From a virus: 36,427 nucleotides of DNA. The stretch covers positions 1 to 36,427 of the IMG/VR virus record IMGVR_UViG_3300013099_000048; one strand, given 5' to 3'. How positions within the stretch are numbered: position 1 is the first letter of the stretch; the number at the start of each line of letters is the position of its first letter. Of this stretch, positions 2,799 to 35,511 are shown in pieces. Both the position numbers and the translations under genes were made by a program. The notes under the pieces are model-generated. The model did no database searches. It saw only the letters and a list, made by a program, of their open reading frames with translations, and was not told the origin of the DNA.

Positions 2799-3866
2799 GT
2801 GGATTGTATACCGGTCCCACCACGGAAGGTTGCAGGTGACCTGTCGTGGTCGCAAGTGTCGAAGTGGAATAGGTGCGCGTGGCAGTGGACTCTACGCTAC
2901 GTGTACGGGTTGAAGGTGCGCGAGGTATCGCGACCGCTCATACGCGGCAGATTGGTCGATGTAGGCGTCGAAGCCGCGCTACGCCAGCACCACAAACTAG
3001 GCAAATGGCTGCCGTCCACCGTGACTAAGGCCATACGTGCTGCAGTGACCGAGGCGCTGAAGGATGGGCTCACCCTCACAAACGAGGATGACACGTGGAC
3101 CGGTGAAGCGGAGGCGTGTCGCGAGGTTGCACTGCGTGCTCTCACCGATCTGGACCTCGACAGGTTCGAGACGGTCGAGGACAGTGACGGCAAACCGCTG
3201 ATCCAGTACAAAATGCGCAGCCCGCTCGGTGTAGATGAGCCGTGGTCAGGATTCGTGGGCATCCTGGACTGGGTCGCCAGGGACAAAGAGACAGGCCGCG
3301 TGTTCCTGGTCGACCTCAAAGTCAGCGCCACGTCTAAAGACAGCGTGACGCACACCCTCGGTGCGCAGTGGGCAATCTACCAACGCATGCTATACACAGA
3401 ACTCGGGATCGAGGTCGACGGTAGCGTGGAGTGGTGGGTACGCGGCGTCACGCCGGGCAAGCCTAAGGTCAACAAAAATGGTAACGTGTCCAGGCAGGCC
3501 GTGGTCACGACCTGGGCCATATACCTGGAGACGGTGAAGCAAAACAAGGGAAAGCCCGCTGACTATCTCGACATGAAGGAGAAATTGGAGGCTACTCCCT
3601 GGTCCAGATGGGAGCCGTTCTACCGCAGCATGAGTACGTGTGAGGCGATATGGGACCGCGTAGTCTTTACGACTGCGAAGGAGATCAAGACGGTACTGGG
3701 CACAAATCGCCCAAACTACACGTTGGACGCAGTACCCAGGAATCTGTCCGGTATGTCGTGCCAGTGGTGTGACTTTCGCGGGCTGTGCCACGGGCAGATG
3801 GCTGGAGATGACGTTTCATGGCTAATTGAGGAAGGATACGAACATGGCAACCAAGAAGGCAAGTAA
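2799..3866 (+). CDS. RecB/Cas4-like PD-(D/E)XK nuclease with Fe-S cysteines
   Basis: 355 residues from GTG 2799, with GAGGT upstream. Catalytic core: GILDW with D157, then VDLK (D172, K174), then a QWAIYQ motif near residue 190, the order seen in RecB-family nucleases. One Cys near the N-terminus (C26) and C321-x2-C-x5-C330 at the end match the split four-Cys 4Fe-4S site of AddB and Cas4 proteins. By family knowledge it would be a DNA exonuclease that makes single strands for recombination or replication. It overlaps the Sak4-like gene by 23 bases, which fits a recombination module of nuclease, annealing ATPase and ssDNA-binding protein. Confidence 0.85.
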   Translation: MDCIPVPPRKVAGDLSWSQVSKWNRCAWQWTLRYVYGLKVREVSRPLIRGRLVDVGVEAALRQHHKLGKWLPSTVTKAIRAAVTEALKDGLTLTNEDDTWTGEAEACREVALRALTDLDLDRFETVEDSDGKPLIQYKMRSPLGVDEPWSGFVGILDWVARDKETGRVFLVDLKVSATSKDSVTHTLGAQWAIYQRMLYTELGIEVDGSVEWWVRGVTPGKPKVNKNGNVSRQAVVTTWAIYLETVKQNKGKPADYLDMKEKLEATPWSRWEPFYRSMSTCEAIWDRVVFTTAKEIKTVLGTNRPNYTLDAVPRNLSGMSCQWCDFRGLCHGQMAGDDVSWLIEEGYEHGNQEGK

Positions 3867-4683
3867 GAAGAAGGAAGAGGAACCGGTCGACCCGTTGGCG
3901 CCGTACCGGGTAGACTCGAACATTATCACGCGCGGTATGAACATCCTGCTGTACGGTCCACAGGGTGCAGGTAAGACATACATGGCGGCAACGGCGCAGG
4001 ATCACCCGGACATGGCCAACGTCCTGTTCCTCAACTGTGAGGGCGGGCTTATCTCGATTGCGCACCGTGGTGATATCGACGCCGTGGACATCACCACGAT
4101 CGATCAGCTTGAGGAAGTGTGCCTAACCTTGAAGGAAGGTGGGTATGAAGGTGTTACTACGGTGGTGGTGGACAGTGTGACCGAGCTGCAGTCAATCTCA
4201 CTGACCGGCATCGTCGAAGAGTCTATGGCCAGTAACCCCAAGGACAAGCACACCAACAGGGACGAGCTGTTTTTGGCTGATTATGGTCACAGCACCAAAC
4301 AGCTCAGCCGCATCCTCCGTATGTTCCGGGATCTGCCGCTCAACGTGGTGCTGATCGCTCACCCGAAGGAAGTGTACCCACCAGGGTCGAAGGGGCCGAA
4401 GGAGACAGCGACACCCCTAAGTATCCGACCCATGTTGACGGACAAGCTGTGCGGTGCAGTGATGGGGTACTGGGACTTTGTGTGGTACCTAAGTGATGTC
4501 GATGGCGAAAACCCGCGACACCTGATCACGCACACAGATGGGACCGTAAAGGTCAAGACCCGAGGAGCACCGTTTTCCGAGCACCTGTTGGACGAGTATG
4601 GAGGGATCGTCGAAGATCCCGACTTGCCGACTTTGTACAACATGTTCTGCACGACGCAGGGCGTAACCGGAGAAGATAAGTGA
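3844..4683 (+). CDS. Sak4-like RecA-fold recombination ATPase
   Basis: 279 residues. ATG 3844 is preferred over the in-frame TTG 3826 because AGGAAGG lies 7-8 bases before it. Walker A GPQGAGKT is at residues 38-45, and a Walker B-like TVVVDSVTEL lies near 110. The short RecA-like core and the NILLYGPQGAGKT start match the phage nucleotide-binding/Sak4 family, which helps single-strand annealing. The N-terminal 15 residues are Lys/Glu-rich and probably disordered. It sits between a nuclease and a probable ssDNA-binding protein, and its stop overlaps the next GTG (GTGA). Confidence 0.85.
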   Translation: MATKKASKKKEEEPVDPLAPYRVDSNIITRGMNILLYGPQGAGKTYMAATAQDHPDMANVLFLNCEGGLISIAHRGDIDAVDITTIDQLEEVCLTLKEGGYEGVTTVVVDSVTELQSISLTGIVEESMASNPKDKHTNRDELFLADYGHSTKQLSRILRMFRDLPLNVVLIAHPKEVYPPGSKGPKETATPLSIRPMLTDKLCGAVMGYWDFVWYLSDVDGENPRHLITHTDGTVKVKTRGAPFSEHLLDEYGGIVEDPDLPTLYNMFCTTQGVTGEDK

Positions 4684-5108
4684 GCAACGACGAAGTTTTC
4701 GAGATGGGCGATTTCACTGCCGACCTGATCCCCGTCGGTGATTATACCGTGCGTTGTGTCGACCTGGAGAAGGGAGAAAGTCAGGCAGGCAACGACATGT
4801 GGATTTGGTCAGTCATGGTCGAAGGCGGGGATCATAACGGCGAAGACATGCGTGTCTACACAGCTCTCACATCGAACGCTTTGTGGAAGCTGGCTGAGAC
4901 AGTGCGCGCGTTCGGTCTTGGCGCGACGGAGGGTAAGGGGTGCAAGTTCAAGCGTGACGACGCCATCGGTGCGAAGGCTACGGCCACGGTTGTGCACGAA
5001 GAGTACGATGGTAAGACGCAGGCTAGCATCAAGAAGTTGTCTCCTTTGAAAAAGGATCCAAAGAAGGCAGCTAAGAAGGCTACCCGCAAGCGCAGCAGGG
5101 ACCTCTAA
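4680..5108 (+). CDS. DUF669-like single-strand DNA-binding protein
   Basis: 142 residues from GTG 4680, overlapping the previous stop. The sequence begins with a beta-rich domain containing a PVGDYTVRC strand and an ...NDMWIWSVMVEGGDHNG segment, the pattern of DUF669 proteins that follow Sak4-like ATPases in phages. The last 25 residues are a Lys/Arg tail. Inferred role: coating ssDNA for the neighbouring ATPase and polymerase. The assignment rests on general shape and context rather than on catalytic residues, so it is moderately secure. Confidence 0.65.
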   Translation: MSNDEVFEMGDFTADLIPVGDYTVRCVDLEKGESQAGNDMWIWSVMVEGGDHNGEDMRVYTALTSNALWKLAETVRAFGLGATEGKGCKFKRDDAIGAKATATVVHEEYDGKTQASIKKLSPLKKDPKKAAKKATRKRSRDL

Positions 5109-5111
5109 GAG

Positions 5112-6791
5112 ATGCTCGCGTCCACAGCTTCACTCGCAAAGGTCGCCATCGCCCAGGTAAAGAAGGCCGACAGGCTATTCTTTGATGTTGAGACAACAGG
5201 GTTACACTGGTCACGTGGCGACCGTATCTGCGGTGTTGCTGTGGACGCCGGGCACGGCACGCACTACCTACCCTTCCGACATGGCGAGGGGTACAACCTG
5301 CCAGAGCACTACCTGGGTAAGTTAGCTGAGGCCATGAACGGCAAGCCAGTGTGCGGACACAACACCAAGTTCGACGCTCACTTCATGGCCCTAGAGGGGT
5401 ACGAGATCCCGGACAGTCTGCATTGTACGCTACTCGCCTCGCAGCTGCTTAACGAGAACGTAAAGAGCTTGTCACTCAAGAAGTTGGGCGACCAGTACCT
5501 TGGATCGGACAGCAGCGCCGAAGACAAGCAACTCGGGGAGGAACTGCGCAAGAGGAAGTTGAAGAAGGGCGACATGTGGAAACTGCCATCAGAGGTCGTG
5601 GCGCCGTATGCCATCCAGGACGTCGACCTCACGCGCCGTCTGTACGAGTATGTGGTTCCCAGGCTTAAGGGGTGGGGGCTATACGAGATATGGTTGGAGT
5701 GCTGCCGATACCTGACCATCACGGCGAACATGGAAGAGCGCGGCATGCAGGTTGACAGTAAGGTACTGTCTAAACTAGCGAGTAGGGCGGAGATCGAATC
5801 GGCGGCGTTGCTTGACAAGATCCGCACCGTAGCCGGGTACGACGTCAACCCTGGGTCGCCACCGCAGATGAAGGGCTTGCTGCAAACAGCAGACACGAAG
5901 GCCAGTACGGTGGAGCGATGCAATCACCCAGCCGCATCGTTGCTATTGAAGTGGCGCCAATGGAGCAAGATGTACAGTTCATACTGCAAGCCCTGGGCGG
6001 AGGCAGCCGCGCTAGACGGTGCCATCCACGCGTCGCTGAACCTAGGCGGAACGGTTGCCGGCCGACCCTCCTGTAGTGGGCCTAACCTACAGGCTGTCGC
6101 CAGGAAGACCGAAGTGTACGTCGTCAAGGACGCCATCGTCGCCCGGCCTGGGCGCGTGATCGTGTCTGCCGACTACAGCCAAGCAGAGTTGCGCCTGGGC
6201 GCGCACTACGCCAAAGAACAGCGTATGATCGACGTGTTCATGGCCGACGGCGATATCCACCAGGAGACGGCAGACGAGGCCGGGATTAAGCGTAATGATG
6301 CGAAGCGCATCAACTTCGGTATCGTGTACGGTCTCGGGTCGAAGGGCTTGGCAGAGCAGCTACGAATCCCGCGTAAAGAGGCCGCCGGCATGTTGTCCAA
6401 ATGGCACGCCACCTACCCGGGGTTCAGCAAGTTAGCCGATGCGGCAGAGAACGCTGCTAGGACGGACGGCCTTATCAGAATGTGGACGGGTCGCATTCGC
6501 CGATTCGACGGCTTGGTCAGTCAGTACCGTAACGCGCTGTCGGCCCTGGTCCAGGGCGGCGTGGCCGAGATCATGCGCACCGCAATCATGAAGTTGGACT
6601 ACCACCGCGACATCGCGCCTATGTTGATGCAAGTGCACGATCAGGTGCTGTTCGAGCCGAAACTGGACGACTTGGAAGAAGCGGTGTATTTTATCAGAGA
6701 AGCGATGCAGGATTTTCATTTCACCGTGCCCATGAAGGTTGACATATCGTATGGCCCGTCATGGGGCGACCAAAAGGAGATAGTGGTATGA
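5112..6791 (+). CDS. dpoZ: PolA-type DNA polymerase with 3'-5' exonuclease (DpoZ-like)
   Basis: 559 residues. The N-terminal DEDDy exonuclease is intact: D25-x-E27, D88 (HNTKFD), Y166-x3-D170. The polymerase domain has the TVAGRPSCSGPNLQ motif (314-327), motif A SADYSQAELR (D354), motif B K398...Y406 and motif C QVHDQ (D510). There is no 5' nuclease domain. Motif C has Gln511 where PolA enzymes usually have Glu. The gene overlaps the PurZ gene by four bases (ATGA). Family knowledge: the DpoZ polymerases of 2-aminoadenine phages are PolA-type, encoded next to purZ, and their exonuclease rejects adenine. The DpoZ name is inferred from this neighbour; the sequence alone shows a PolA polymerase. 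Confidence 0.9.
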   Translation: MLASTASLAKVAIAQVKKADRLFFDVETTGLHWSRGDRICGVAVDAGHGTHYLPFRHGEGYNLPEHYLGKLAEAMNGKPVCGHNTKFDAHFMALEGYEIPDSLHCTLLASQLLNENVKSLSLKKLGDQYLGSDSSAEDKQLGEELRKRKLKKGDMWKLPSEVVAPYAIQDVDLTRRLYEYVVPRLKGWGLYEIWLECCRYLTITANMEERGMQVDSKVLSKLASRAEIESAALLDKIRTVAGYDVNPGSPPQMKGLLQTADTKASTVERCNHPAASLLLKWRQWSKMYSSYCKPWAEAAALDGAIHASLNLGGTVAGRPSCSGPNLQAVARKTEVYVVKDAIVARPGRVIVSADYSQAELRLGAHYAKEQRMIDVFMADGDIHQETADEAGIKRNDAKRINFGIVYGLGSKGLAEQLRIPRKEAAGMLSKWHATYPGFSKLADAAENAARTDGLIRMWTGRIRRFDGLVSQYRNALSALVQGGVAEIMRTAIMKLDYHRDIAPMLMQVHDQVLFEPKLDDLEEAVYFIREAMQDFHFTVPMKVDISYGPSWGDQKEIVV

Positions 6792-7843
6792 GTTCCAGAG
6801 TGCTAGCCGTGGTTGGTGGTCAGTACGGAAGTGAAGGTAAGGGAAATATCGTAGCTAAGATCGCGTCTAACTACGACATGCACATCAGGACGGGAGGTCC
6901 CAACGCTGGGCATAGCCTGCGCCACAAAGGTAGAACGTGGAAGATGCGGATGGTGCCGTGTGGCTGGGTGAACCCAGATGCGAAGCTGTTCATTGGCCCA
7001 GGTGCGGTAGTCGACCCAAGACTGCTGCGGCGCGAGATTGATGAAGTCGCAGAAGTGGACCCGACTATCCACAGCCGTATCAGGATCGCGGCATCCGCTG
7101 CAGTAACACTGCCGGAGGACGAGGAAGCGGAGGCGGGTCTCGTCTTTTCCATCGGCTCGACCGGTGAGGGTGTAGGTGAGGCGCGCGCTAGGCGCATGGC
7201 ACGCAAGGACACGGGCCGGGTACTGTTGCGGGACGTGGCCGATGAGGAGGGTTTGAGCAGGTACGTTATCGAAGATACGACCTCGTACACGTCCAACCAC
7301 ATCCGCGCCGGCAAGTCTATCCTGCTGGAGGGTACGCAAGGGTTCGGCCTGTCGCTCATCCACGGACATTGGCCATACGTCACCAGCCACGACACCACGG
7401 CCGCGACCCTGACTGCCGACGCTGGGCTGTCGCCGCTCGACGTCACGAACGTACTACTGGTGGTCCGCACTATGCCGATCCGAGTGGCTGGCACGAGTGG
7501 GCCACTAGAGAATGAAACCGACTGGGACACCGTTGGGAAGCGTCTGGGAAAAGACGTCACCGAGCGTACTACCGTCACGCAGAAGATACGCCGCATCGCG
7601 GATTGGGACGACGGGCTGGTAAAGAGAGCTATCAACGTCAACCGCCCCACATCCATCGCTTTGAATTTCCTCGACTACCTTGACCCGGACATTGAAGGTG
7701 AGCACATGTGGAACGTCATCGCAAAGAGCGACAGAGTGCTCGGCATGGTGTCGTACGTCGAGTCGCGATTCGGTGTGCCAGTCTCCATTGTTGGTACTGG
7801 TGGGCCTGAGTGGTCGATATCGTACCGTAGGCCCGCACTGTGA
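6788..7843 (+). CDS. purZ: PurZ, 2-amino-deoxyadenylosuccinate synthetase
   Basis: 351 residues from ATG 6788, with AAGGAG 8 bases upstream. It is a homologue of adenylosuccinate synthetase PurA: P-loop-like GGQYGSEGKG (10-19), GGPNAGH with H42, GSTGEGVG (123-130), EGTQG (181-185) and a TSHDTTA segment. The catalytic Asp of PurA (GDEGKG) is Ser15 here, the published hallmark of PurZ, which makes room for the 2-amino group of dGMP. PurZ joins dGMP and aspartate using a nucleoside triphosphate; host PurB then releases 2-amino-dAMP (dZMP). The coupled polymerase, dUTPase and MazG-like genes support a base-replacement operon. An ordinary PurA would be about 430 residues with Asp. Confidence 0.93.
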   Translation: MSSRVLAVVGGQYGSEGKGNIVAKIASNYDMHIRTGGPNAGHSLRHKGRTWKMRMVPCGWVNPDAKLFIGPGAVVDPRLLRREIDEVAEVDPTIHSRIRIAASAAVTLPEDEEAEAGLVFSIGSTGEGVGEARARRMARKDTGRVLLRDVADEEGLSRYVIEDTTSYTSNHIRAGKSILLEGTQGFGLSLIHGHWPYVTSHDTTAATLTADAGLSPLDVTNVLLVVRTMPIRVAGTSGPLENETDWDTVGKRLGKDVTERTTVTQKIRRIADWDDGLVKRAINVNRPTSIALNFLDYLDPDIEGEHMWNVIAKSDRVLGMVSYVESRFGVPVSIVGTGGPEWSISYRRPAL

Positions 7844-8265
7844 TCACACTCATGGTTAAGGACATAGGTGCTGGCGAGGTACCCAGGAAAGCCTATGCCA
7901 ACGATGCAGGGCTCGACCTGTACGTGTCGGAAGATTGTATCGTGTGGCCAAAGTCGATGTCGGATGTGCCCCTAGGTATCGCCATCGAGCTAACCGGAGG
8001 GTATGTATGGGCCAGGATCACAGCTAGATCGAGCACGTATCGAAACCACAAGCTACAGGTGCTTGAAGGAGTCATAGACCAGGGCTACAGAGGCCCACTA
8101 TTCGTGGGGCTTATCAACAACGGCTGGCTACCACGTCGCATCAAGGCTGGTGATCGCGTGGCACAGCTCATTGTGCATGAGACCGTACCTACTATCGTCG
8201 TGAAAGTTGGTACACTTTCGGAGTCTATCCGCGGTGAGCGTGGATTTGGGAGCACAGGATCGTGA
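7840..8265 (+). CDS. dut: Trimeric-type dUTPase
   Basis: 141 residues from GTG 7840, overlapping the PurZ stop (GTGA). All five family motifs are present in order: I NDAGLDLY (D22, D26), II ITARSS, III GVIDQGYRGPL, IV RIKAGDRVAQLIV and V RGERGFGSTGS. The enzyme hydrolyses dUTP to dUMP and pyrophosphate, keeping uracil out of DNA and feeding thymidylate synthesis. Its place between PurZ and the MazG-like fusion makes it part of the phage's dNTP-pool control. Length and motifs are normal for an active homotrimeric enzyme. Confidence 0.95.
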   Translation: MITLMVKDIGAGEVPRKAYANDAGLDLYVSEDCIVWPKSMSDVPLGIAIELTGGYVWARITARSSTYRNHKLQVLEGVIDQGYRGPLFVGLINNGWLPRRIKAGDRVAQLIVHETVPTIVVKVGTLSESIRGERGFGSTGS

Positions 8266-8903
8266 ACGACGTACGTGGTATTTTCGAAGAGGCTGCTAAG
8301 ATATTCGCCGTTAAGAGTGCCGCATACAGCAGCGACAACGTAGCTATGGTCGGGCAATCCGGCGTAGCTAGCCGGTGTGTTGACAAGGTTATGCGGTTGC
8401 GAACGTTGCAGAACGACCCAGGTGTCGCTGGCGACGAGGCGATAGCTGATACCTGGATGGACCTTCTTGTCTACGCCGCCATAGGTGTAAGCCTGGATCG
8501 AGGCGAATGGGACAAGTCCACCAGGATGGTGTACCTCGCAGGTCCAATGGACTTGGTCGATACGACGGAGTCGCATGAGTGGCGCGTCAAGGCTCGAGAT
8601 TGGCTTGGAGCTAGGGGTATCGCGTCGTTCAACCCAGCCTTGCCGTACAGGCGAGGCGCCGTAGCGTGGGCCAGCGTATCCAGAATTAACCGCGTAGCTA
8701 TTGACGAATGTGACGTACTGCTGGCAAACGTAGGGGAGGGACAGCGCACCATCGGTACGTGGCGTGAAATTGAGCACGCCAGAGCAGCAGGAACGCGTGT
8801 GGTACTGGTAGCACCCGAGTACACCAAGTGCCTTGAAACGCAGGACTGTGAGCAGTACCCCACGCTGATGGCCGCACTGATGGCGGTATGGCCCGATGTC
8901 TAG
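8262..8903 (+). CDS. MazG-like / 2'-deoxyribosyltransferase-like fusion
   Basis: 213 residues from GTG 8262, overlapping the dUTPase stop. Residues 1-85 resemble the MazG-like Nmad1/DUF1599 domain: a GVASRCVDKVMRLRTL helix (R38, D41, K42, R45) followed by E59-x3-D63-x3-D67, likely Mg-binding acids. Residues 89-185 resemble nucleoside 2-deoxyribosyltransferases/DNPH1: VYLAGPM, SFNPALP, SRINRVAIDECDVLLANV and TIGTWREIEHA, with E169 as the likely catalytic Glu. MazZ in known Z-phages is a MazG-like enzyme that makes dGMP, the PurZ substrate. The second domain could remove or exchange bases on deoxynucleotides. The fusion and its role in Z-DNA synthesis are inferences. Confidence 0.75.
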   Translation: MNDVRGIFEEAAKIFAVKSAAYSSDNVAMVGQSGVASRCVDKVMRLRTLQNDPGVAGDEAIADTWMDLLVYAAIGVSLDRGEWDKSTRMVYLAGPMDLVDTTESHEWRVKARDWLGARGIASFNPALPYRRGAVAWASVSRINRVAIDECDVLLANVGEGQRTIGTWREIEHARAAGTRVVLVAPEYTKCLETQDCEQYPTLMAALMAVWPDV

Positions 8904-9177
8904 GAACGAAAGCTGTGTCGACAATGAGATCATCCGCCGCATCATCACCATGGGCGGATGGGCGCATAAGGTGCACGGCAACCAGTACAACACCGCAGAG
9001 CCCGACATCGACGGCTGCCTTGATGGCGTGTCCATCAAAGTAGAGTCAAAAAAGCTGGGCAGAGACGCCGATCCGCTACAGAGGATGGCATTGGAACGTT
9101 GGCGTCTAGCTGGAGCCGTAACCGGGGTATGCCACTCGGTGGCCGAGTTCGACAATTTGTGGGAGGCTAGAGATTGA
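8896..9177 (+). CDS. VRR-NUC-type endonuclease
   Basis: 93 residues from ATG 8896, overlapping the upstream stop by 8 bases. A GGWAHKVHGNQ segment is followed by EPDIDG (E35, D37), VESKK (E50, K52) and a downstream Gln (Q62), the compact PD-(D/E)XK pattern of stand-alone VRR-NUC proteins. These are thought to cut branched or flap DNA. It sits directly before a SNF2-type helicase with a 4-base overlap, a common phage pair, so it may act with that helicase on replication or recombination intermediates. Confidence 0.85.
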   Translation: MSRNESCVDNEIIRRIITMGGWAHKVHGNQYNTAEPDIDGCLDGVSIKVESKKLGRDADPLQRMALERWRLAGAVTGVCHSVAEFDNLWEARD

Positions 9178-10538
9178 GCAACCTGTGGGCGCACCAGGAG
9201 AAGGCCCTCGCTAGGCTTTACATCAGCGAGCACGGTTTGCTGCTGTCTATGCGGATGGGTTCAGGCAAGACTAGAGTGGCTGCTACGTACCTGGACGGTA
9301 CGAACAACATTCTAGTGGTCTGCCCCAAGACCGTGGCCTGGGATCGTGTGTGGCAAGACGAGATGCCGCACTACCGTGAAGTCAAGCTGTACGGCTGCAC
9401 AGCCAGTCAGCGCGTCGAGCGGTATAAAGAGGCTGTAGCCTCCGAGGATCTTACCCTGTGCGTCTGCACGTATGGCGCCGTGTGGCGGGACAGTTTGAAG
9501 AAGGCTCTTCTTAAGAGCCCGCCAGGGGCACTAGTAGCGGACGAATGCCACCACATCAAGGGTGCCTCGTCCAAAGTGTCTCGCGCCATGCGCCTACTCA
9601 GCAAGAAGTGTGACAAGCGACTGGGCCTGTCAGGAACACTGCTGGCCCAGTCGCCCCTTGATGGTTGGGCGCTAATGCGGTTTATCGATGAGAGCGTCGT
9701 GGACAAGTCATTCGGTCGATTCCGTGACAAGCACGCGGTAATGGGCGGATTCAAGAACCACGAGGTGTTGTCCGGCAGGCATGGGGTCCCGTGGCGCAAC
9801 ATGGACGAGTTTGTCGAAGCAATGGACAAAGTGTGCCACTACGACGACACCACAGTGTGGGACTTGCCTGTGCACGACGTGATACGCAAATTCCCCATGT
9901 CCGCAGCAGCGTTGACTGCACAGCGCGACTTAGTAAGCGTAGCGGTAGCCGACCTGGGCTCTGGCATCATCACGGCAGCCAACGCTGGCGTGCGTTTCAT
10001 GAAGATACAGCAGCTGTCATGTGGCTTTGCCCAGCCGGGACCCATGCCCGGCGAGCTGAATCCCGAGCCCATCATCATCGACACCAACCGGCGCGACACC
10101 CTGGTCGGCGTGCTAGACGAGATCGACCCGGCGGAACCTGTGCCCGTGTTTGCTCGCTTCATAGTCGACCTGGACAACATCAGGCAAGCTGCAAATATTG
10201 CCGGCCGTCCACACTTTGAGATATCCGGCGCCGCCAGCGAGCTCGACGAATGGCGCGAATGCAGAGATGGGGCGGTCCTGGGCGTACAGGTGCAGTCTGG
10301 CGGTGAAGGGATCTCCCTGGTACAAGCAGCTTACTGCATACTCTACAGCTTGGATTTCTCAAACTCCAACCACGAGCAGATCCGGGGGCGTATGGCTCGC
10401 CCCGGACAGGAGCGGTCGCCCACCTTCATCTACCTGGATGGTATCGGGTCGATGGACGGCCGCATTCGCCGTAGCCTGGGCTCGCGCCAGTCCGTCGTCA
10501 TGGACCTGTACGATAGGCTACAGGCCGTCGCCGGGTAG
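9174..10538 (+). CDS. SNF2-family DNA helicase/translocase
   Basis: 454 residues from a TTG at 9174 that overlaps the previous stop (TTGA). Motif I is MGSGKT (28-33), motif II DECH (123-126), motif III LSGT, and motif VI QIRGRMARPGQ near residue 394, followed by the ...FIYLDGIGSMDGRI region. The order and the QxxGRxxRxGQ motif are those of SNF2-type ATPases in phages. It likely remodels or moves along double-stranded DNA during replication or recombination, next to a VRR-NUC nuclease. It is the last gene of the rightward operon; the convergent gap follows. Confidence 0.9.
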   Translation: MSNLWAHQEKALARLYISEHGLLLSMRMGSGKTRVAATYLDGTNNILVVCPKTVAWDRVWQDEMPHYREVKLYGCTASQRVERYKEAVASEDLTLCVCTYGAVWRDSLKKALLKSPPGALVADECHHIKGASSKVSRAMRLLSKKCDKRLGLSGTLLAQSPLDGWALMRFIDESVVDKSFGRFRDKHAVMGGFKNHEVLSGRHGVPWRNMDEFVEAMDKVCHYDDTTVWDLPVHDVIRKFPMSAAALTAQRDLVSVAVADLGSGIITAANAGVRFMKIQQLSCGFAQPGPMPGELNPEPIIIDTNRRDTLVGVLDEIDPAEPVPVFARFIVDLDNIRQAANIAGRPHFEISGAASELDEWRECRDGAVLGVQVQSGGEGISLVQAAYCILYSLDFSNSNHEQIRGRMARPGQERSPTFIYLDGIGSMDGRIRRSLGSRQSVVMDLYDRLQAVAG

Positions 10539-33395: not shown

Positions 33396-33733
33396 CATAC
33401 GAGGAACATTCGAACGGGGTACCGCTACACTTTATCAAGTTGTACACTTACATACAGAACGTCGTGTATGATTACAACAAAGAATTCGGAACGAAAGTGA
33501 CATGTAATATGTCTCTGGACGGCGTGGCGGACCCGTACTTCACAGCGCGTTTGGCGGATGAAGCAGACGAAACTAGTAGAGTCGTATGTTATTCGACGCT
33601 CATGGTGGCGATGCCCAACGAAGGCGTGGCATCGGGCCACAGCTCCTTCGCCGAAAGTCCTAGTGGCGTACTAAGTTTCACCAACATGATGCTAGGCGAG
33701 TACCTTCCAAAACAATCAGTGGGTCTTTCATGA
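33392..33733 (+). CDS. Hypothetical protein, TTG or GTG start
   Basis: About 113 residues. A TTG at 33392 overlaps the previous stop (TTGA); a GTG at 33383 is also in frame. The C-terminus reads as real protein (YTYIQNVVYDYNKEFG ..., STLMVAMPNEGVASGH) and ends with a TGA that overlaps the primase ATG. No family recognised. Being coupled on both sides places it in the same mRNA as the primase-helicase. Confidence 0.6.
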   Translation: MTYEEHSNGVPLHFIKLYTYIQNVVYDYNKEFGTKVTCNMSLDGVADPYFTARLADEADETSRVVCYSTLMVAMPNEGVASGHSSFAESPSGVLSFTNMMLGEYLPKQSVGLS

Positions 33734-35511
33734 CGGGTTTCCAAGAGCACGCACTCATGTACCGCGACTACGGCTGGTCAGTCATACCGATCAGACGCAG
33801 GGACAAACGACCGGCCATCACCTGGGAACCGTTCACACACGAGCCACCGCCACTCAAGAGGTTGAAGTCCTGGTGGCCCAACGACCACGACGCGCTCAAC
33901 CTCGGAGTCGTGACGGGTGCGGTATCGAACATCGCCGTACTGGACCTGGACCCCGCACATTTCGATGAAGATTCGCGCACAATCGAACAATGGATAGAAG
34001 AATACCCCACCCCGCTAATTCAACGTTCGGGCGGTGGTGGGGCGCACTTGTTTTACTCGATCCCACCAGGGGAGATGATCAAGACACAGGCCGGGATCTT
34101 CCCCGGCGTCGACGTGCGGGGCGAGCACGGGATCATCGTCGCGGCACCCAGTATCCACCAGAACGGTAAGACGTATACCTGGACTAAGGGCGCATTGGAC
34201 TTCATGTGCGGGGACGTGCTGCTGCCACCCTTCCCCATCGACATCGTCAAAGATGACAAGATCGAGGAGGTAGACGGAAGGCAGAAGAACCGCTGGATCG
34301 TCGACGCGCTCGACCACTGCGACAAGGGCTTACGTAATGTCACGGCATCGCGCTTGGTCGGATACTTCATCAGCCAAGGCGTACCCAAAGACATCGTATC
34401 GGCCACGCTGCACGCGTGGAACAAGGGTCTAGCGCACCCACTACCAAGCCGCGAGCTAGACCTCACGGTGCGCAGCATCGAGCACAAGCGTGAGGACGCG
34501 CCGGCAGGCTTTCACCTGGACAGTCTGACCGACTTCATGACCCAGTACGGAGACGAACAGACCCGCTGGACGATCGACGACTGGCTACCATCGGAGACAA
34601 TCTGTTTCGTGGTGTCGCCGCCCGGTACGTACAAGACCTGGATGCTGCTAGACCTCGCCGTGTCCGTGGCGAGCGCTACACCGTTCCTCGGACAGTACCC
34701 CGTGCGCAAAAGTGGGCCCGTGATCTTCATGCAGCAGGAAGACCCGCGATCGGAGATTGCATCGCGTGCGTCCACCATCGTGTGTTCACGCTACGGGTAC
34801 GTGCAGGAGACCTTTACTAACACGGAAAATGGGTCGCACTACATCGGGACGCCACCCGATATCCCGCTGTACTTCTACACCGACAGGCGCTTCCGCTTCG
34901 ACGACGCGCCGGTCATGGAAGAGTTCACGGGCATAGTTCGCAAGATCAAGCCAGCTCTCGTCATTCTGGACCCGCTGTACTCGGCCACCAGCACGGATGA
35001 CTACATGGCCAAGACGGCGGAGCAGATGTTCGTGCTAAAGCGTCTACGTGACGAGACCGGGTGCACCTTTGTGATCGCGCACCACACCACCAAGAAGGGT
35101 GGGGCGGAGCATGGGCGCGAGGGGTTGTGGGGCAGTCAGTTCCTAAACGCGTTCCTGGAGACAGGCTGGCAGTTGCGCCGTCCGGACTCACGCACGGATA
35201 CAGCGATAACCGTGTTGCGACACTTCAAGGCTAGCGCCAACGCACCGCCACTTAATCTCGACTTCGAGATCGACACAAGCAACGCGACGTACATAGTAAA
35301 CACGTCGGATCACGACGTAGCGTTATTGAAAGGAGGTATCCACACTATGATCATCGATACTGTTGTGTCTAGTGAAGTACCGCTAACGAAGTCGCAGATA
35401 TGCGACCGCGTGTCGGCGCACCGTACCTCGGTGGGACGCAACCTCAAGTCGATGGTAGACGATGGCATGCTTATCGAAAAGAACGACAACTACACAATAG
35501 CGGGAGAGTGA
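33730..35511 (+). CDS. PrimPol-RepA-like helicase fusion
   Basis: 593 residues from ATG 33730. The N-terminal Prim-Pol domain has VLDLD (D72, D74), RSGGGGAHLFY (H106) and GVDVRG (D128), the acids and His of archaeo-eukaryotic primases. The middle holds a RecA/DnaB-like ATPase of the RepA/AAA_25 type: Walker A SPPGTYKTW (K302, T303), Walker B ALVILDPLYS (D414) and FVIAHHTTKKG. The last 55 residues form a winged helix (LTKSQICDRVSAHRTSVGRNL). It would prime and unwind DNA at the origin for the PolA-type polymerase. PrimPol is also found in the Z-DNA cyanophage S-2L. Confidence 0.9.
   Translation: MTGFQEHALMYRDYGWSVIPIRRRDKRPAITWEPFTHEPPPLKRLKSWWPNDHDALNLGVVTGAVSNIAVLDLDPAHFDEDSRTIEQWIEEYPTPLIQRSGGGGAHLFYSIPPGEMIKTQAGIFPGVDVRGEHGIIVAAPSIHQNGKTYTWTKGALDFMCGDVLLPPFPIDIVKDDKIEEVDGRQKNRWIVDALDHCDKGLRNVTASRLVGYFISQGVPKDIVSATLHAWNKGLAHPLPSRELDLTVRSIEHKREDAPAGFHLDSLTDFMTQYGDEQTRWTIDDWLPSETICFVVSPPGTYKTWMLLDLAVSVASATPFLGQYPVRKSGPVIFMQQEDPRSEIASRASTIVCSRYGYVQETFTNTENGSHYIGTPPDIPLYFYTDRRFRFDDAPVMEEFTGIVRKIKPALVILDPLYSATSTDDYMAKTAEQMFVLKRLRDETGCTFVIAHHTTKKGGAEHGREGLWGSQFLNAFLETGWQLRRPDSRTDTAITVLRHFKASANAPPLNLDFEIDTSNATYIVNTSDHDVALLKGGIHTMIIDTVVSSEVPLTKSQICDRVSAHRTSVGRNLKSMVDDGMLIEKNDNYTIAGE

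What the first reader, a model, noticed from the sequence alone, without database searches (positions are those of the whole stretch)
5112..8903. Z-genome (2-aminoadenine) cassette with PurZ, PolA-type polymerase, dUTPase and a MazG fusion
Seen: the PurA-like protein has GGQYGSEGKG, with Ser15 in place of the catalytic Asp, and is coupled by 4-base overlaps to a PolA-type polymerase, a complete dUTPase and a MazG-like protein. Known: PurZ enzymes carry this Asp-to-Ser/Gly/Thr change and make the precursor of dZTP; Z-phages encode PolA-type DpoZ or PrimPol next to it. Inferred: this phage's DNA has adenine replaced by diaminopurine. It also carries both polymerase types, PolA and PrimPol.
Basis: partly seen in the sequence, partly recalled or inferred. 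Interest (0 to 1): 0.92.

Follow-up and report, generated by a model that had tools for sequence, protein, structure and literature searches.

The report
Phage cassette for diaminopurine DNA
An uncultivated phage carries a tightly packed gene set that very probably swaps the adenine in its DNA for 2-aminoadenine, as some known phages do, but with a DNA polymerase from a separate, ordinary-looking branch and with a fused enzyme not seen in isolated phages.

Summary
In detail: polA, purZ, dut and a fusion gene (5112-8903) overlap by 4 bases, and the PurA-like protein has Ser15 for the catalytic Asp. A Z-genome is the best reading, but not because of Ser15 alone: many bacterial and archaeal genomes carry Ser-type PurA paralogs. 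Better support is Lys266, the TTVT loop, a Dut that groups with those of PurZ phages, and the last gene. That gene is a MazG-like domain fused to a nucleoside-deoxyribosyltransferase domain keeping five key residues of DmtZ, the dAMP hydrolase/transferase of PurZ0 phages. DatZ is absent. The window belongs to an uncultivated lineage with conserved order PrimPol-Cas4-Sak4-PolA-PurZ-(Dut)-(DUF5664 or MazG/NDT)-VRR-SNF2. Its PolA is not a known DpoZ: it keeps the Tyr that DpoZ enzymes change to Phe, and trees reject joining it to either DpoZ clade. Yet this PolA branch has PurZ next door in 27 of 27 contigs long enough to show it. Best reading: a further Z-DNA lineage with its own polymerase branch and a new pool-cleaning fusion. 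PolA plus PrimPol is common in Z-phages. All activities are inferred.

The parts
5112..6791 (+). PolA-type DNA polymerase with 3'-5' exonuclease domain; own branch, not DpoZ-1 or DpoZ-2; keeps Tyr406 (E. coli Tyr766)
   Evidence: Pfam DNA_pol_A and exo1; exo DEDD and pol D/R/K/Tyr/HD residues intact; tree and AU tests
6788..7843 (+). PurZ-like 2-aminoadenylosuccinate synthetase: Ser15, Lys266, TTVT loop, Asp296
   Evidence: overlaps polA by ATGA
7840..8265 (+). dUTPase-fold protein grouping with the Duts of PurZ phages (candidate DutZ: dATP/dGTP/dUTP to monophosphates)
   Evidence: best phage matches are Duts of PurZ phages; tree 99/98
8262..8525 (+). N-terminal MazG-like (DUF1599/NMAD1-type, phrog_1485) domain of the fusion protein, candidate dNTP pyrophosphohydrolase
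   Evidence: all-helical in the model
8520..8903 (+). C-terminal nucleoside-deoxyribosyltransferase (DmtZ-like) domain of the same protein: Tyr91, Asp97, Pro125, Asn143, Glu169
   Evidence: Foldseek best matches NDTs, MilB, DNPH1
8896..9177 (+). VRR-NUC-like nuclease, conserved next gene of the lineage
   Evidence: phrog_93 endonuclease; synteny
9174..10538 (+). SNF2-type helicase, conserved next gene of the lineage
   Evidence: synteny
2799..3866 (+). PD-(D/E)XK (Cas4-like) exonuclease, upstream part of the conserved replication block
   Evidence: synteny
3844..4683 (+). Sak4-like recombinase, upstream part of the conserved replication block
   Evidence: synteny
4680..5108 (+). DUF669 protein, likely ssDNA-binding (role inferred), directly upstream of polA
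33730..35511 (+). PrimPol-helicase, conserved in the lineage
   Evidence: synteny

Best explanation
The cassette makes dZTP and removes dATP so that the phage genome is copied with 2-aminoadenine (Z) instead of adenine. Dut and the MazG-like domain hydrolyse dATP and dGTP to dAMP and dGMP. PurZ joins dGMP to aspartate, giving N6-succino-2-amino-dAMP, which host enzymes turn into dZTP. The NDT domain fused to MazG destroys dAMP (releasing adenine) and may transfer its deoxyribose-phosphate to free Z base, giving dZMP. The PolA next door copies the genome in this dATP-poor, dZTP-rich pool. It belongs to a branch separate from both known DpoZ clades, so Z selection may come mainly from the pool, as proposed for S-2L, or from features other than the Tyr-to-Phe change. 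Shown: sequence, residues, trees, gene linkage. Inferred: every enzyme activity and the base composition of the virion DNA.
For: PurZ-type residues: Ser15, Lys266 (Lys in many PurZ and all PurZ0 compared, Arg in Asp-type PurA) and the TTVT loop, shared with phiVC8 and Ghobes. The protein lies in a clade of phage PurZ (100/99) beside PurZ0 and PurZ. The Dut groups with the Duts of PurZ phages against four ordinary phage dUTPases (99/98); its nearest phage matches lie in PurZ cassettes. The NDT domain keeps all of Tyr6, Asp12, Pro57, Asn77 and Glu103 of characterised Ghobes DmtZ (PMC12884076). Dut, NDT or DUF5664 adjoins PurZ in 22 of 24 loci of the lineage; one of the other two (L032) is a contig ending 1.5 kb after PurZ. 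MazG-like and NDT are fused in the window, L002 and L028 and adjacent in L023. Starting from PolA alone, 27 of 27 close contigs with at least 1 kb of following sequence have PurZ next to it, nine of them not fetched by the PurZ search; the three without end within 0.5 kb of polA. Only 2 of 49 more distant PolA loci have PurZ.
Against: No biochemistry and no cultured member of this lineage. PurZ scores below the NCBIfam PurZ cut-off (249 against 300) and a little higher against an archaeal-type PurA model; Ser-type PurA also occurs in cells. DmtZ Trp124 is not kept. The PolA lacks the Tyr-to-Phe mark of both DpoZ clades. An AU test does not reject placing the window PurZ inside PurZ0 (p=0.115), so its separation from PurZ0 is supported by bootstrap only.
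Confidence: 0.8

Rival explanations
1. The cassette makes dZTP but adenine is only partly replaced, because the polymerase does not discriminate and no DatZ is present.
For: Tyr406 and standard PolA motifs; no DatZ in the window or, above cut-off, in 18 related records; S-2L's PrimPol takes both A and Z (PMC8065100).
Against: Dut, MazG-like and NDT domains together offer dATP and dAMP removal, shown for the homologous DutZ, DUF5664 and DmtZ (PMC12884076); strict PolA-PurZ linkage.
Confidence: 0.12
2. The Ser-type protein is a general nucleotide-metabolism enzyme like the cellular Ser-PurA paralogs, and the phage DNA is ordinary.
For: Ser-type PurA occurs in many bacterial and archaeal genomes, mostly beside canonical PurA and without Z-cassette neighbours.
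Against: The window protein is in a phage clade apart from the main cellular clades and sits with Dut, DmtZ-like NDT and a PolA branch tied to PurZ.
Confidence: 0.06
3. The polymerase is a true Z-selective DpoZ that reached selectivity by other residues (a third independent origin). This is compatible with the best explanation and concerns only where Z selection lies.
For: Separate branch rejected from DpoZ-1 and DpoZ-2 yet tied to PurZ in 27 of 27 informative contigs; intact exonuclease, the domain proposed to support Z selection through backtracking (PMC8599892).
Against: No Z-specific residue or insertion could be named; linkage alone does not show selectivity.
Confidence: 0.45

Closest known systems
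PurZ0 phages (Gordonia Ghobes, Arthrobacter Glenn/Wayne type, Microbacterium PermaG/Theresita)
   Same: Ser-type PurZ with Lys at E. coli 303 and Asp at 333, Duts grouping together, DmtZ-like NDT in Ghobes and Glenn, PolA plus PrimPol in PermaG and Glenn, no DatZ found
   Different: PurZ only about 36-39% identical; PolA on another branch with Tyr not Phe; NDT fused to a MazG-like domain, not to Dut as in Wayne/Glenn
PurZ phages (Vibrio phiVC8, Alteromonas ZP6, Acinetobacter Barton)
   Same: Ser-type PurZ with TTVT loop and PolA close by
   Different: Those have DatZ and MazZ or DUF5664, DpoZ-2 with Phe, and Asn not Asp at E. coli 333
Cyanophage S-2L Z-cluster (PMC8342488, PMC8065100)
   Same: Proposed logic of purging dATP so that a polymerase without Z selectivity builds Z-DNA
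   Different: S-2L uses DatZ, MazZ and PrimPol only; the window has PolA, Dut and a MazG-NDT fusion
DmtZ (NDT family, PMC12884076)
   Same: Tyr, Asp, Pro, Asn and Glu of the active site; NDT/MilB/DNPH1 fold
   Different: Trp124 not kept; N-terminal MazG-like fusion
Cellular Ser-PurA paralogs (often kinase-fused) of bacteria and archaea
   Same: GGQYGSEGKG with Ser
   Different: Mostly separate clades; the kinase-fused ones checked have Arg not Lys at E. coli 303; IrrE-like and DUF7002 neighbours, no Z cassette

Membership tests
PurZ / 2-aminoadenylosuccinate synthetase | Ser (or Gly) in place of catalytic Asp13 | tested here: met
   Ser15
PurZ / 2-aminoadenylosuccinate synthetase | Arg303 of PurA (contact to IMP ribose) replaced or displaced; TTVT loop | tested here: met
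   Lys266 and TTVT
PurZ / 2-aminoadenylosuccinate synthetase | Score above the curated NCBIfam PurZ cut-off | tested here: not met
   249 bits against 300; L002 with the same cassette also falls short (264), while isolated PurZ/PurZ0 phages pass
PurZ / 2-aminoadenylosuccinate synthetase | Falls in the PurZ or PurZ0 phage clade | tested here: inconclusive
   Own clade 100/99 beside them; AU does not reject the window inside PurZ0
PurZ / 2-aminoadenylosuccinate synthetase | dGMP as substrate | not testable with these tools
   Needs an enzyme assay
DpoZ (either clade) | Tyr-to-Phe at helix O (phiVC8 F459) | tested here: not met
   Tyr406 in the window and Tyr in all fetched members of its PolA clade
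DpoZ (either clade) | Groups with DpoZ-1 or DpoZ-2 | tested here: not met
   AU p=0.0003 and 2e-64
DpoZ (either clade) | dZTP preferred over dATP | not testable with these tools
   Needs a polymerase assay
DutZ | Groups with Duts of Z-phages, apart from ordinary dUTPases | tested here: met
   99/98, but with only four ordinary phage dUTPases as contrast
DutZ | dATP/dGTP diphosphatase activity | not testable with these tools
   Needs an enzyme assay
DmtZ | NDT fold with Tyr6, Asp12, Pro57, Asn77, Glu103 | tested here: met
   All five present; fold match
DmtZ | Trp124 lid | tested here: not met
   Not kept; also missing in several other PurZ-phage NDTs
Z-cluster (datZ-mazZ-purZ) | DatZ HD-domain dATPase | tested here: not met
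   None in window; five reference phages detected as controls

The most novel reading that the evidence does not exclude
A third, independent origin of Z-DNA replication: a widespread uncultivated phage lineage whose PolA never acquired the Tyr-to-Phe mark of known DpoZ enzymes yet is always encoded beside PurZ, in some members with a MazG-DmtZ fusion that turns dATP into adenine and dZMP in one protein.
Probability: 0.5. Interest if true: 0.72.

Novelty: new variant of a known kind. Interest (0 to 1): 0.6.

Why it matters
Z-DNA phages were described with two PurZ groups that match two polymerase groups (PMC12884076). A further lineage with a polymerase lacking the one shared DpoZ mutation makes directly testable whether Z selection lies in the polymerase or in the nucleotide pool. 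The MazG-NDT fusion would be a compact tool for making Z nucleotides. The result also warns that the Ser motif alone should not be used to call Z-genomes.

Tried and rejected
Searches with single window sequences in viral contigs found one PurZ relative and none for PolA or the fusion; alignments were needed. A tblastn of the fusion against isolated phages found nothing, and no PDB sequence matched it. First HMMs for Dut, NDT and MazG merged through fused proteins and were rebuilt by domain. The idea that PolA plus PrimPol is unusual was dropped. The idea that Ser15 is diagnostic was dropped. A DNA megablast of the first 25 kb found no isolated relative. E. coli dut was aimed at wrongly and not used.

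Full report
WHAT IS THERE. The window is a 36,427-base virus record with terminase, portal, head protease, major head and tape-measure genes on the minus strand and a replication block on the plus strand. No isolated phage is close at DNA level over the first 25 kb. The families are confirmed by Pfam, PHROGs and NCBIfam. The PolA has intact exonuclease (DEDD) and polymerase residues.

PURZ. Ser15 stands where E. coli PurA has Asp13. This is necessary but not sufficient: a scan of GTDB genomes with the window/L002 alignment kept 80 loci in bacteria and archaea, all Ser-type. Twelve of these genomes were searched for PurA, and a canonical Asp-type PurA was verified in nine (for example Pseudomonas, Mycobacterium, Sorangium, Bradyrhizobium). 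Stronger marks are Lys266 at the place of E. coli Arg303, and the TTVT loop, both as in PurZ of isolated Z-phages (the role of these positions is from PMC8342488). Asp296 corresponds to E. coli Asp333, as in PurZ0, where the phiVC8 type has Asn; this predicts GTP rather than ATP, an inference. PMC12884076 states ATP preference for PurZ0 and GTP for PurZ in its results, which does not fit its own introduction or S-2L PurZ, so the point needs an assay.

PLACE IN THE TREE. In a careful tree of 59 proteins the window sits in a clade of 19 uncultivated phage proteins (100/99), beside PurZ0 (100/100) and the PurZ phages (100/100). All lie in a Ser-type clade (100/100) that also holds the cellular paralogs (a 90-row tree agrees). 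Relations among the three phage groups are not resolved (union with PurZ0 supported only 40/42), and an AU test does not reject placing the window alone inside PurZ0 (p=0.115).

THE FUSION GENE. The 213-residue protein has a MazG-like all-helical N-terminus (DUF1599/phrog_1485 type) and an NDT domain. Its AlphaFold model (mean pLDDT 79, 12 sequences) matches NDTs, MilB and DNPH1 in the PDB, the same families that DmtZ matched in PMC12884076. Tyr91, Asp97, Pro125, Asn143 and Glu169 align with DmtZ Tyr6, Asp12, Pro57, Asn77 and Glu103; Trp124 is not kept. In Wayne-type phages NDT is fused to Dut; here it is fused to MazG, so the two steps dATP to dAMP to adenine would again be held in one chain (activity inferred). 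The same fusion is in L002 and L028, and the two genes are adjacent in L023.

DUT. The window Dut's best isolated-phage matches are Duts of PurZ phages such as Theresita, whose cassette runs PolA, PurA-like, two small genes, Dut. Duts of PurZ phages form one clade (99/98) against four ordinary phage dUTPases; the contrast set is small.

POLYMERASE. PMC8599892 states that the only change shared by both DpoZ clades is Tyr to Phe in helix O. The window and all fetched members of its PolA clade keep Tyr; the isolated DpoZ enzymes compared have Phe, except Streptomyces phage Galactica, which has Tyr. The PolA tree gives the window's clade 100/99, and AU tests reject joining the window to DpoZ-1 (p=0.0003) or DpoZ-2 (p=2e-64). 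A scan of viral contigs starting from this PolA clade returned 30 close loci: PurZ is next in all 27 that have at least 1 kb of following sequence, including nine contigs not fetched before; the three without PurZ end within 0.5 kb of polA. Of 49 more distant PolA loci, two have PurZ. Some of the contigs are near-duplicates, so the count is of contigs, not of independent events.

SYNTENY. Across 24 loci of the lineage the order PrimPol, Cas4-like, Sak4, PolA, PurZ, (Dut), (DUF5664 or MazG-like/NDT), VRR-NUC, SNF2 recurs with some rearrangements; the window has its PrimPol at the other end of the record. DatZ was not found in the window or, above cut-off, in 18 relatives, while five reference phages gave it.

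VERDICT. The Z-genome reading is well supported by context and residues but not proven. What is new is the lineage: its own polymerase branch, without the DpoZ mark, and a MazG-DmtZ-like fusion. The literature held here describes only two PurZ and two DpoZ groups (PMC12884076); no paper found describes this lineage, though the library is not complete.

Noticed in passing
L154:5437-7047, L133:5242-7038, L139:5377-7044 and other loci among L102-L181: Many bacteria and some archaea carry Ser-type PurA paralogs fused to an N-terminal NMP-kinase-like P-loop domain, with an upstream IrrE/Peptidase_M78 gene (found in both genomes tested) and a downstream DUF7002 gene (three of three); function unknown.
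   Followed up: partly
L113:4211-7065: An unfused Ser-type PurA in Bradyrhizobium sits directly after a protein with RNase_H_2, DUF429 and kinase-like domains.
   Followed up: partly
L009 (Streptomyces phage Galactica) 1482-3854: This isolated PurZ0 phage also has Tyr, not Phe, in PolA helix O, so the Phe mark is not universal even among isolated PurZ0 phages.
   Followed up: no
L093:7995-10278: A PurZ contig with a MazG-like gene followed by an NDT-Dut fusion: all three pool enzymes in a row.
   Followed up: no
L030:4787-6904: A contig whose PurZ is in the window's clade but whose PolA lies elsewhere on a long branch and aligns Thr at the helix O Tyr position.
   Followed up: no
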